Assembly (NCBI GenBank): GCA_947245585.1 | Contig: CAMXPV010000016.1 | Coordinates: 1-64,000, forward strand | Direction: 5' to 3' | DNA length: 64,000 nt | Source: an uncultured Lachnospiraceae bacterium | GTDB taxonomy: Bacteria; Bacillota; Clostridia; Lachnospirales; Lachnospiraceae | Shown: in pieces, positions 244-2,386 of the stretch | Numbering within the stretch: position 1 is the first letter of the stretch | How the letters are laid out: every line of letters starts with the position of its first letter | Made by a program: the position numbers and the translations under genes | Notes under the pieces: model-generated | Told to the model about the DNA's origin: nothing | Databases searched by the model: none | Seen by the model: only the letters and a program-made list of their open reading frames with translations

Positions 244-759
244 CTAACTTTCCCTCTTGTTAACCTCTTCCTCATATACCATAAATGTCCTGTCATCGTA
301 CAGCACCCACTCGACCAGATCAACCACATCGGGAAACTGCTCCAAAAACCGGCAGACTGCCCCAACTGCCTCCTTCGCCGCCTTCTCCACTGGATAACCG
401 TAAATCCCTGTTGAAATTGACGGAAAGGCCACGGTGCGGATTCCGTTCTCCATCGCAACCTTTAAAGAATTATAATAGCAGGAGGCAAGTTTTTCCGGCT
501 CACCATAAGAACCTCCACGCCAGACAGGCCCGACCGTATGGATCACATAATCGCACGGTAATTGATAAGCCTTTGTCAACTTTGCTTCTCCCGTCAGACA
601 GCCGTGAAGCATCCGGCACTCTTCCAAAAGCTGCGGCCCTGCGGCCCTGTGGATTGCCCCGTCCACTCCACCGCCTCCAAGCAAGCTCGTATTCGCCGCA
701 TTGACGATTGCCTGCACGTCCGTGATTTTTGTAATGTCGCCTTTTATCGTTTTTAACAT
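244..759 (-). CDS. Macrodomain protein, probable ADP-ribose / O-acetyl-ADP-ribose hydrolase (YmdB-like)
   Basis: A 171-residue single-domain macro protein. The N-terminal I-x-GDIT motif, the [20 protein letters not shown] segment at about residues 18-37 and the [11 protein letters not shown] loop near 113-123 are the ADP-ribose-binding signatures of the MacroD/YmdB class, which removes ADP-ribose from proteins or deacetylates O-acetyl-ADP-ribose. Length fits a stand-alone cytoplasmic enzyme. The ATG at 759 follows a GGAAGGA ribosome binding site at good spacing. It lies 69 bases downstream of the NADAR gene on the same strand, so it may be the last gene of an ADP-ribose-linked cluster that begins with a broken DUF3990 gene. 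Family assignment is firm; the substrate is not visible from sequence. Confidence 0.93.
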
Positions 760-828
760 GTTTTTATCCTTCCATTTTCAACCTATTGTTTTGATATAAG
801 TCTCGTAAAATATCACTGCTCCCTTTTA

Positions 829-1305
829 TCACAGCCTGTCCCGCACCATCATCAGCGCATATCCGAGCAGATTTTGTCCCTTCCATTTTGCCCGTTCAAG
901 CCTGTCCGGGTCATTCATTGACAATCCAATACCCCAGATGCAGTCTTTCACAGCGCACTCCGCTAATACAGCATTTCCCGTAGCTTTAAGCCATTCCTGC
1001 AATTTTTCATTCTGTGAAAACTTTGCAAGTAATCCCTCATAAACAACAAGCTGTCGCACGCCGTTCCAATGGTTCTCATCATATCCTGATACACGCCGTC
1101 CCAACTCCTTAACGCGGGCAACATCTTCCGTTTCAAGAATTTGGGACGCTATGTCGTTGTCATGAAAGCAAATCGCTTTGCGGTACATCATAAACTGCTC
1201 CATAGATGAAAAAACTATCCCATCTATCGTGAAACAGGAAGGATACCAATTACTCAGATATCCATATTCCTTATCCGGGTTGTGAAAACAAATAATATGA
1301 TTCAT
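829..1305 (-). CDS. NADAR family protein (YbiA-like)
   Basis: A 158-residue protein matching the NADAR/DUF1768 fold: an N-terminal stretch ending YGYLSNWYPSCFTIDG, then SSMEQFMMYRKA at about 34-45, and the C-terminal IWGIGLSMNDP...KWKGQNLLGYALM block. NADAR proteins act on ADP-ribose or N-glycosidic bonds of related molecules; YbiA is linked to riboflavin precursor damage, and some members reverse ADP-ribosylation of guanine bases in DNA. The start ATG overlaps the stop of the preceding gene in an ATGA, so the two are translationally coupled. The macrodomain gene follows. Which NADAR activity applies here is inference from the context. Confidence 0.9.
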   Translation of the reverse strand: MNHIICFHNPDKEYGYLSNWYPSCFTIDGIVFSSMEQFMMYRKAICFHDNDIASQILETEDVARVKELGRRVSGYDENHWNGVRQLVVYEGLLAKFSQNEKLQEWLKATGNAVLAECAVKDCIWGIGLSMNDPDRLERAKWKGQNLLGYALMMVRDRL

Positions 1306-1718
1306 GTAATCCCCACCTTTCTTACGGCAAGATCCAATTCCAAATCATGCAGCCCAACGTACGCTTTTTTCAAATATGCAAGCGGTACTTTTTCAATAAC
1401 CTCACGACTCGGAATGCTGTACTGCCATTGATAGTAAGCATAAAATTCTCCAATCCAATCGGGCATAAACCCACCAAGCGCTGACCCTTTTTTCAGTTCA
1501 TATCGATCTGTATGCCGAAAATACTCCCACAAGGTCTGTGCATCCATCGTACAGACAAACGCCTGCGCCTCATCCACATATTTTCTTGTGCTGCTCTTCA
1601 TGTAGGAACAAATAAAGTCCTCTGTATCCATATCGGGATAAGTAATTGCGACATAATCAAACAGTTTCCCCTGATTTTCGATTATCTCGTCCAAGTATGC
1701 TTTGGAATAAGCTCCCAT
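1302..1718 (-). CDS. Conserved protein of unknown function, coupled to NADAR
   Basis: About 138 residues, soluble, acidic and aromatic-rich, with no signal peptide or membrane segment and no motif I can assign. The ATG at 1718 (reading MGAYSKAYLDEIIENQGK) follows a GAGGTGAG ribosome binding site; a TTG at 1739 overlapping the upstream stop is a possible but poorer start. It ends in an ATGA overlap with the NADAR gene and directly follows the broken DUF3990 gene. Its place between an ADP-ribosyltransferase-like remnant and two ADP-ribose-handling proteins suggests a partner, antitoxin or adaptor role; that is inference only. Confidence 0.75.
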   Translation of the reverse strand: MGAYSKAYLDEIIENQGKLFDYVAITYPDMDTEDFICSYMKSSTRKYVDEAQAFVCTMDAQTLWEYFRHTDRYELKKGSALGGFMPDWIGEFYAYYQWQYSIPSREVIEKVPLAYLKKAYVGLHDLELDLAVRKVGIT

Positions 1719-1735
1719 ACCACTCACCTCGCCTT

Positions 1736-2307
1736 TCAAAATAATGTGCTGAATACTTTGGTTACACGGTTTCGGTCTGAATCAATCAGCTTTCGCATAT
1801 TTTCACGTGCCCAAATATCCCGTTTGTTATACTTCTCATTAAACTCCGTAAATGCAACGGACTGCAGCTCCTCAGAATGCTCAGATAGTTTTTGGTACGC
1901 CCGCTCTGTTTTGATGCAATACTGAATGCCTAATCCACCGAGCGCCAGTAATTTCTCCAAGATATCTATATCCACTTCATCGCGGACAAAAGACTTGGCG
2001 ATGTAAAAATATGAGGCGTTGGCTCTCCACCCCTTGATCACATCATATTCATTCGTTTATATACCAAATTTTTCAATAAATTATTTTGATAATATACGAT
2101 ACCGCTTAGAATCTGCCGCGTCACGGTGCTTCATCAACTCAGCCAACCATTTGAAGCATTCGGACGGCAGACAGCCCACTCTTTCGCAAATTCCAAACTT
2201 TCCGTAAGATAAAACCCTTTTCCGTAATCGTGCTTTTCCTCACCCAGTCCGAATTTCGGCGTCACCGTTTCCTCCGGGCTGCCGTGATATAAAATAATCT
2301 TTCTCAC
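1736..2307 (-). pseudogene. Broken DUF3990 (ADP-ribosyltransferase-like) gene
   Basis: From a GTG at 2307 with an AGGAGG ribosome binding site the frame reads IILYHGSPEETVTPKFGLGE, then HDYGKGFYLTES, the His and Tyr motifs expected of the DUF3990/ADP-ribosyltransferase clan. It then stops after a Trp. The rest of the protein continues in another frame as WLAELMKHRDAADSKRYRIL, with two in-frame TAA codons near 2084 and 2063, followed by an open C-terminal part of about 100 residues (IKGWRANASYFYIAK to TKVFSTLF). The join looks like a deletion of a few tens of codons at the shared Trp, with a frameshift. The promoter and ribosome binding site are intact, so loss may be recent. Family recognition comes from motif memory, not from a search. 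Confidence 0.8.
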
Positions 2308-2357
2308 GATACGCCTCCTGTCATACCAGCATTCTTGCCCACCGCATTGCTGTATTC

Positions 2358-2386
2358 ATTATACCCTCACCGATATGGTTTCACAA
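2358..2386 (-). promoter_or_regulatory. Promoter of the DUF3990-NADAR-macro cluster
   Basis: On the minus strand a -35 TTGTGA and a -10 TATAAT are separated by 17 bases, about 50 bases before the GTG of the broken DUF3990 gene. Near-consensus for the housekeeping sigma factor. Confidence 0.7.

What the first reader, a model, noticed from the sequence alone, without database searches (positions are those of the whole stretch)
244..2386. ADP-ribose cluster: DUF3990 remnant, unknown protein, NADAR and macrodomain genes in one run
Seen: a promoter at 2358-2386, then a broken DUF3990 gene with LYHGS and DYGKGFYL motifs, an unrecognised 138-residue gene, a NADAR gene coupled by ATGA, and a macrodomain gene. 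Known: DUF3990 belongs to the ADP-ribosyltransferase clan; NADAR and macrodomains remove or bind ADP-ribose, and NADAR/macro proteins act as antitoxins to DarT-type DNA ADP-ribosyltransferases. Inference: this may be a toxin-antitoxin or defence module with two separate reversal enzymes, and the unknown protein would be a new component.
Basis: partly seen in the sequence, partly recalled or inferred. Interest (0 to 1): 0.72.

Follow-up and report, generated by a model that had tools for sequence, protein, structure and literature searches.

The report
Broken ADP-ribosylation toxin operon, antitoxins intact
A gut bacterium carries the remains of a three-gene operon, a broken enzyme that probably tags molecules with ADP-ribose plus its probable inhibitor and eraser, of a kind already listed as a candidate phage defence but not yet tested.

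Summary
On the minus strand lie a DUF3990 gene in two pieces (A), a 138-residue gene (B, 1302-1718), a NADAR gene overlapping it by ATGA (C, 829-1305) and a MacroD-type macrodomain gene (244-759). A, B and C match PADLOC's candidate defence system PDC-M42, so the unknown gene is a catalogued component. Among 87 distinct loci, A, B and C are all intact in 56 of 77 assessable on both sides. The macrodomain does not belong: apart from the window it turned up once in loci L001-L111, away from the module, and an 85% identical copy sits in a genome without detected B. B is probably the antitoxin: in a wider DUF3990+B family without NADAR, long B proteins carry a helix-turn-helix, and both halves of B resemble DUF3791, a partner of other DUF3990 genes. 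Intact modules often sit in type I restriction operons: hsdS just upstream in 27 of 58, one doubtful. Best reading: a broken member of an ART toxin / antitoxin / NADAR-eraser module.

The parts
2358..2386 (-). sigma-70-like promoter candidate (TTGTGA-17-TATAAT) upstream of the DUF3990 gene
   Evidence: 10 of 12 matches; number of such sites in the stretch not above chance (5 found, 6.9 expected); none found just upstream of A in relative L032
2134..2307 (-). A, N-terminal piece of a broken DUF3990 (ART-clan) gene, with the conserved H and Y motifs
   Evidence: PF13151 E 8.4e-15; PDC-M42A positions 1-56 of 215, E 1.3e-26
1736..2041 (-). A, C-terminal piece of the same broken DUF3990 gene, with the conserved Q
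   Evidence: PF13151 E 6.8e-9; PDC-M42A positions 115-215 of 215, E 2.6e-53
1302..1718 (-). B, intact 138-residue gene (PDC-M42B), probable antitoxin
   Evidence: PDC-M42B E 5.4e-73; relatives; HTH-carrying relatives; similarity of both halves to DUF3791
829..1305 (-). C, intact NADAR gene (PDC-M42C), start overlaps the stop of B as ATGA; probable ADP-ribose eraser
   Evidence: PF08719 E 1.4e-49; PDC-M42C E 2.3e-85; 8bau E 3.2e-23; the catalytic E, K and E columns align; these three invariant in 16 of 16
244..759 (-). MacroD-type macrodomain gene; a neighbour 69 bp downstream of the NADAR gene, judged not part of the module
   Evidence: identity; not found beside the module in relatives, found elsewhere without it

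Best explanation
This is a broken copy of a mobile three-gene module, PADLOC's candidate PDC-M42. A, the DUF3990 protein, is an ADP-ribosyltransferase-fold toxin that transfers ADP-ribose from NAD+ to a cellular or phage target, most likely a guanine-containing nucleic acid. B is its protein antitoxin: it binds and silences A, and in distant relatives it also carries a DNA-binding domain for autoregulation. C, a NADAR, removes ADP-ribose that A attaches by leakage. In intact loci the module often lies between hsdS and hsdR of a type I restriction operon, so it probably serves phage defence there. In this genome A is broken, no type I specificity gene was found, and B and C remain as an orphan antitoxin and eraser. 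The macrodomain gene is a chance neighbour. Shown here: gene identities, the break, conserved order, the macro exclusion, the HTH-carrying relatives of B and the restriction embedding. Inferred: toxicity, the target, B binding A, the erasing step and phage defence.
For: Identity: (DUF3990 in 50 of 50 intact A; ART-PolyVal in 31 of 50 at E up to 0.01, best 1.1e-5); H8, Y33 and Q154 invariant in 50 of 50; Pfam's ART clan includes DUF3990 (PMC7955679, passage). Toxin role: DUF3990 is found as the variable C-terminal (toxin-position) domain of type VI Rhs effectors, in one case with a predicted immunity gene downstream (PMC4524185, PMC10763514, PMC12165300, one passage each; activity of the domain stated as unknown). 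Unit: 56 of 77 assessable loci have A, B and C intact; M42-branch A has B next to it in 15 of 15 (two of them broken A), B has C or a remnant in 20 of 22. Antitoxin reading of B: long relatives end in HTH_3 (3 of 3 long ones scanned; by eye all 7 long rows of 21); B without intact A occurs in 12 of 78 assessable loci (B short in 2 of these), A without B in 0 of 15 of the M42 branch. Eraser: NADAR catalytic columns aligned to 8bau and invariant in 16 of 16; [quoted passage not shown] Defence context: Methylase_S in 37 and HSDR_N in 19 of 132 flanking ORFs (132 of 196 candidate ORFs given); hsdS upstream in 27 of 58 (one doubtful) and hsdR within 2.5 kb downstream in 24 of 73; background 87 Methylase_S matches in 31 genomes, none in the window's own.
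Against: I found no test of DUF3990 or B activity in the passages seen. By sequence no solved structure resembles B or A (8 hits, E 0.17 or worse). The ART-PolyVal match of the first A protein is below Pfam's cut-off (20.6 against 31.2 bits). NADAR is missing or broken in 14 of 86 assessable loci, so it is not essential. The asymmetric-loss argument rests on small numbers, and most loci were found by searching with B. DUF3791 is fused to DUF3990 in L168-L170, which would be odd for a simple separate antitoxin. The two halves of B do not match each other directly. In 28 of 54 loci assessable on both sides no type I restriction gene lies next to the module, and none was found in the 20 wider-family loci.
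Confidence: 0.6

Rival explanations
1. B is not the antitoxin but a substrate-targeting or sensing subunit of the DUF3990 enzyme, and NADAR alone is the antidote, as in DarT1-NADAR.
For: B is strongly conserved (mean column identity 78% over 60 rows, which were the closest relatives); DUF3791 is fused to DUF3990 in L168-L170; NADARs are tested antitoxins to DarT1 and YarT (passages).
Against: 10 of 77 fully assessable loci have intact A and B with NADAR absent or broken, and the wider DUF3990+B pairs lack NADAR, so something other than NADAR must restrain A. The HTH tail of long B proteins is typical of antitoxins (established knowledge).
Confidence: 0.2
2. A two-eraser module, with the macrodomain acting together with NADAR on the product of DUF3990.
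For: The macro gene lies 69 bp downstream on the same strand and may be co-transcribed in this genome. L168 and L169 show another grouping of DUF3990, NADAR and a macro-like ORF (macro named by eye).
Against: Apart from the window itself, the macro protein found one match in loci L001-L111, on the opposite strand and away from the module (L072). L032, with B 93% identical, has none after NADAR. The 85% identical macro of a same-genus genome sits without A, B or C in 8 kb, and no B was found in that genome, which is 84% complete.
Confidence: 0.05
3. A housekeeping or metabolic NAD+-related operon, with NADAR acting in flavin metabolism (TIGR02464) and no conflict role.
For: NCBIfam TIGR02464 (riboflavin biosynthesis intermediates N-glycosidase) is above cut-off for the NADAR (150 against 73.7 bits).
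Against: Patchy occurrence (strong B in 22 of 299 genomes), spread over records titled Lachnospiraceae, Bifidobacterium, Treponema and Anaerovibrio at 62-70% identity (several are metagenome bins), frequent siting in restriction operons and frequent decay.
Confidence: 0.08

Closest known systems
PDC-M42 (PADLOC-DB 2.0.0 phage defence candidate, genes M42A, M42B, M42C)
   Same: The same three gene families; all window pieces match its models.
   Different: The window copy has a broken A. The system is a database candidate: no paper in the library searched names it. A preprint on embedded defences (bioRxiv 10.1101/2024.01.29.577857) was seen only as a reference-list entry; that it is the source of the PDC names is recall.
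DarT1-NADAR (DarTG1) and YarT-YbiA toxin-antitoxin pairs
   Same: An ART toxin gene beside a NADAR antidote gene (PMC11543638 and PMC11125620, passages).
   Different: The toxin family is DUF3990, not DarT or YarT; there is a third gene B; the window NADAR has glutamate where DarT1-linked NADARs use aspartate D171.
DarTG2 inside a type I restriction operon of EPEC (RRDM island)
   Same: An ADP-ribosylation toxin-antitoxin set placed between hsdS and hsdR (PMC12255303, passages).
   Different: DarT2 with DarG instead of DUF3990, B and NADAR; tested there, untested here; the window copy itself is not in such an operon.
PrrC anticodon nuclease of EcoprrI
   Same: A latent toxin gene embedded in a type I restriction operon (PMC3874165, passage).
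   Different: A tRNA nuclease, held silent within the restriction enzyme complex and not by a neighbouring antitoxin gene.
DUF3990 domains at the end of type VI Rhs effectors
   Same: The same Pfam domain in a toxin position (passages).
   Different: Those are secreted fusion proteins aimed at other bacteria; A is a stand-alone small protein with B and C.
RES-Xre toxin-antitoxin pairs (recalled, no call)
   Same: An ART-fold toxin next to an antitoxin with an Xre-type helix-turn-helix, like the long B relatives.
   Different: RES is another family of the clan, and no NADAR is involved.

Membership tests
PDC-M42 | DUF3990 gene matching M42A | tested here: met
   both pieces match PDLC04641 (E 1.3e-26 and 2.6e-53), but the gene is broken
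PDC-M42 | M42B gene next to it | tested here: met
   PDLC04642 E 5.4e-73, positions 3-136 of 138
PDC-M42 | M42C (NADAR) gene next to M42B | tested here: met
   PDLC04643 E 2.3e-85; ATGA overlap
PDC-M42 | works as anti-phage defence | not testable with these tools
   no experiment found in searches
DarT1-NADAR | toxin of the DarT family | tested here: not met
   the pieces match DUF3990 (and one ART-PolyVal), not DarT; one search likewise for 50 intact relatives
DarT1-NADAR | NADAR catalytic residues (E88, K95 and D171 of the E. coli C7 enzyme) | tested here: inconclusive
   E36 and K43 align and are invariant in 16 of 16; the third position is E116, as in the solved NADAR 8bau, not D
ART (ADP-ribosyltransferase) clan | ART fold and catalytic motifs | tested here: inconclusive
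toxin-antitoxin module (type II build) | closely spaced toxin-like gene and small partner gene, partner with a DNA-binding domain in some members | tested here: met
   close spacing; HTH_3 in long B relatives; the window B itself has no HTH
toxin-antitoxin module (type II build) | toxicity of A and neutralisation by B | not testable with these tools
   needs co-expression
DUF3791 | B belongs to the DUF3791 superfamily | tested here: inconclusive
   hhalign score 24.6 (N half) and 30.2 (C half) against at most 16.6 and 17.3 in 200 column shuffles each and 16.0 and 14.5 in 67 unrelated profile pieces; close relatives of B alone give no match and Pfam gives none for the window B
DarG-type macrodomain antitoxin | macro gene linked to the toxin gene across genomes | tested here: not met

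The most novel reading that the evidence does not exclude
DUF3990 with DUF3791-type partners is a large untested family of ADP-ribosylation toxin-antitoxin systems. B is a fused pair of DUF3791-like domains. The PDC-M42 branch added a NADAR eraser and settled between hsdS and hsdR as a guard of type I restriction: when a phage blocks or damages the restriction enzyme, B lets go of A and the ART stops the infection, a PrrC-like strategy with reversible nucleic-acid ADP-ribosylation as the weapon.
Probability: 0.2. Interest if true: 0.75.

Novelty: new member of a known kind. Interest (0 to 1): 0.5.

Why it matters
It ties an abundant protein family of unknown function (DUF3990; the M42A model finds a match in 148 of 299 genomes of this bacterial family) to a concrete, testable scheme: toxin, antitoxin and eraser, often housed in restriction operons. 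If true, it adds a further ART family to reversible ADP-ribosylation in phage defence and gives DUF3791-like proteins a role. The window copy is a natural loss of the toxin with both protecting genes kept.

Tried and rejected
Macro as a module part: rejected by synteny.

A solved relative of B or A by sequence: none for B at E up to 10; for A 8 hits at E 0.17 to 0.78 with unrelated proteins.

Phage or plasmid carriage: 1 of 72,556 plasmid records (Treponema pTS1, DUF3990 plus B, no NADAR named among the 8 features shown) and 1 of 50,697 phage records, unverified and unannotated. The scan of viral contigs used two short patterns; 6 stretches matched and none was confirmed. A phage home is not supported.

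Promoter as evidence of an operon: not above chance and not found just upstream of A in L032.

B against DUF3791 with the close relatives only (A1): not significant (probability 0.6%). With the diverse alignment alone 31%; the clearer result came after trimming and splitting. The two halves of B against each other: no match (41 of 200 shuffles as good). The NADAR alignment against DUF3791 as a control: no match.

First hsdR profile: its seed began with an hsdS-like stretch, so that count was dropped and redone with another seed. L056 in the hsdS count is doubtful because the profile hit the A reading frame.

One search used rows typed from the listings: 77 A rows (weak ones and the second fragments in G000 and G012 left out), 116 B rows, 51 of the 71 C rows listed; I checked by eye that none of the left-out C rows lies next to a B row. 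Of 67 A rows with E below 1e-20, 8 have no listed B downstream; a more sensitive profile found a weak B in 3 of the 6 of these that were fetched; 101 loci, 14 dropped as duplicates by B, 87 counted.
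Full report
What is there. The first 2.4 kb of the window, which starts at base 1 of contig C16 of an unnamed 3.69 Mb genome, holds a run of minus-strand genes. Reading with the genes: a broken DUF3990 gene (A), a 138-residue gene (B, 1302-1718), a NADAR gene (C, 829-1305) whose start overlaps the stop of B as ATGA, and a MacroD-type macrodomain gene (244-759). Pfam and NCBIfam confirm Macro and NADAR, Pfam confirms DUF3990, and neither has a family above cut-off for B. 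PADLOC's library, however, has a model for each of A, B and C under one candidate system, PDC-M42 (M42A 1.3e-26 and 2.6e-53 for the two pieces, M42B 5.4e-73, M42C 2.3e-85). The 'unknown' gene is therefore catalogued. In the library of papers four papers hold DUF3990 (one passage read in each), none PDC-M42, none PF13151, and one DUF3791 (listing only).

The break. The two open pieces of A cover model positions 1-56 and 115-215 of 215. The 92 bases between them stand where the model has 58 codons; part of that stretch is still recognisable but holds stops. A has no intact reading frame in this assembly. The pieces still show pairwise dN/dS of 0.05 to 0.22 against L032 and L033, which suggests a recent break; B has 0.04 to 0.06 and C 0.19 to 0.22. 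An assembly error cannot be excluded.

The unit. A scan of one genome per species gave 124 stretches that encode a relative of B, of which 80 loci were kept, and a search of 299 same-family genomes gave more. In 87 distinct loci (of 101; 14 duplicates dropped) A, B and C are all intact in 56 of the 77 that can be judged on both sides. A is intact in 66 of 78 and C in 72 of 86. In the 299 genomes, all 15 A matches of the M42 branch (two of them broken) have B next to them; 22 strong B matches have A upstream in 17 and C or a remnant of it downstream in 20, of which 2 are short fragments; 19 of 23 strong C matches have B or a piece of it upstream. B relatives at 62-70% identity occur in records titled Lachnospiraceae, Bifidobacterium, Treponema, Anaerovibrio and others (many are metagenome bins), which speaks for transfer.

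The macrodomain is not part of it. With the window's own macro protein as query (single-sequence search, E up to 1e-3), the loci L001-L111, some with short flanks, gave three hits: the window's own gene twice (L001, L015) and one on the opposite strand away from the module in L072. The nearest relative, L032 (B 93% identical), has an acetyltransferase-like gene and others after NADAR (that name is my reading). In two same-genus genomes the macro gene occurs at 85% and 63% identity without A, B or C in 8 kb around it, and no B was found in them (the two assemblies are 84% and 67% complete).

What B is. B has no solved relative by sequence. Twenty wider-family loci were fetched: B-like genes lie directly after a DUF3990 gene in 17, before one in 1 (L127), and no DUF3990 was found in 2 (L120, L121); none has a NADAR match. 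The long B-like proteins (about 215 residues) end in a helix-turn-helix: HTH_3 at 3.8e-10 to 2.2e-7 in the 3 long ones scanned, visible by eye in all 7 long rows of the 21-row alignment. In L119 the DUF3990 protein itself has an HTH match before the ART part. A toxin gene followed by a small gene that may carry such a domain is the usual build of a toxin-antitoxin pair (established knowledge). DUF3791, a 60-residue domain, sits beside other DUF3990 genes, for example in this genome on contig C10, and is fused to one in L168-L170. Both halves of B match a DUF3791 profile: 24.6 and 30.2, against at most 16.6 and 17.3 in 200 column shuffles each and 16.0 and 14.5 in 67 unrelated profile pieces. 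Close relatives of B alone give no match, and the halves do not match each other, so I call this likely, not proven.

What A and C do. DUF3990 belongs to Pfam's ART clan (PMC7955679, passage). The 50 intact A proteins all match DUF3990 and 31 match ART-PolyVal at E up to 0.01, below Pfam's cut-off in the one table shown; H8, Y33 and Q154 are invariant in 50 of 50. That these form an H-Y-Q active site is inference. Elsewhere DUF3990 is the strain-specific C-terminal domain of type VI Rhs effectors, in one case with a predicted immunity gene behind it; its activity is stated as unknown (PMC4524185, PMC10763514, PMC12165300, passages). That supports a toxin role. NADAR enzymes reverse guanine ADP-ribosylation on DNA and RNA and are antitoxins to DarT1 and to YarT (PMC11543638, PMC11125620, PMC11833690, passages). 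The window NADAR aligns to the solved NADAR 8bau at 3.2e-23 with the glutamate, lysine and second glutamate of the active site in place, invariant in 16 of 16. The second acidic residue is glutamate, not the aspartate of DarT1 partners.

Where intact modules live. Of 132 flanking reading frames (132 of 196 found by a simple gene caller were given), 37 match Methylase_S and 19 HSDR_N. With profiles of my own, hsdS lies directly upstream in 27 of 58 loci with enough sequence (one, L056, doubtful), hsdR within 2.5 kb downstream in 24 of 73, hsdS upstream together with hsdR downstream in 16 of 54, and some hsdS or hsdR next to the module in 26 of 54. The background is 87 Methylase_S matches in 31 whole genomes, none in the window's own genome. 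None of the 20 wider-family loci shows these genes. [quoted passage not shown] coli island that protects against several phages (PMC12255303, passages), and PrrC is the older example of a latent toxin gene in such an operon (PMC3874165, passage). Finding candidates by their embedding in other systems is a known approach, cited there to a preprint that I could not read.

Reading. The best-supported account is a three-part module: an ART toxin (A), a protein antitoxin (B) and an enzymatic eraser (C), often housed in restriction operons and probably used against phages. The window copy has lost A and kept B and C. Shown: identity, break, order, exclusion of the macro gene, HTH-carrying relatives of B, restriction embedding. 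Inferred: toxicity, target, binding of B to A, erasure by C, phage defence. Against: NADAR is absent or broken in 14 of 86 loci, 28 of 54 lie outside restriction operons as far as seen, the loci were mostly found with B as bait, and the DUF3791 fusion to DUF3990 fits a simple antitoxin poorly. It works like the DarT1-NADAR and YarT-YbiA pairs, but is not a member: the toxin family differs and there is a third gene.

Noticed in passing
L168:2665-4211, L169:2642-4188, L170:3600-5146: A DUF3791+DUF3990 fusion gene (237 aa) follows a ligA-like gene and precedes a NADAR gene by about 300 bp, with a macro-like ORF 1.3 to 1.6 kb further in L168 and L169; a second, separate grouping of DUF3990 with NADAR. 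The three loci look like copies of one element. The ligA and macro names are read by eye.
   Followed up: partly
L171:2836-5426: The same ligA-like and NADAR neighbourhood without a DUF3990 match.
   Followed up: no
L172 (G000 contig C10, about 72531-73174): The window's own genome has an intact DUF3990 gene directly after a DUF3791 gene, a different DUF3990 system; another DUF3990 match lies on contig C3.
   Followed up: partly
L112-L118: A common two-gene family: DUF3990 followed by a B-like gene of about 215 aa with a C-terminal HTH, without NADAR; its proteins match the PDC-M42A and M42B models more weakly than the window's do.
   Followed up: partly
L174, L175, L176: DUF3990 genes flanked by a DUF3791 gene on one side and a weak DUF3791-like match on the other, perhaps the unfused counterpart of B.
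   Followed up: no
window:2395-3438: A 347-residue minus-strand protein with no Pfam family above cut-off and no relative in 20 related genomes.
   Followed up: no
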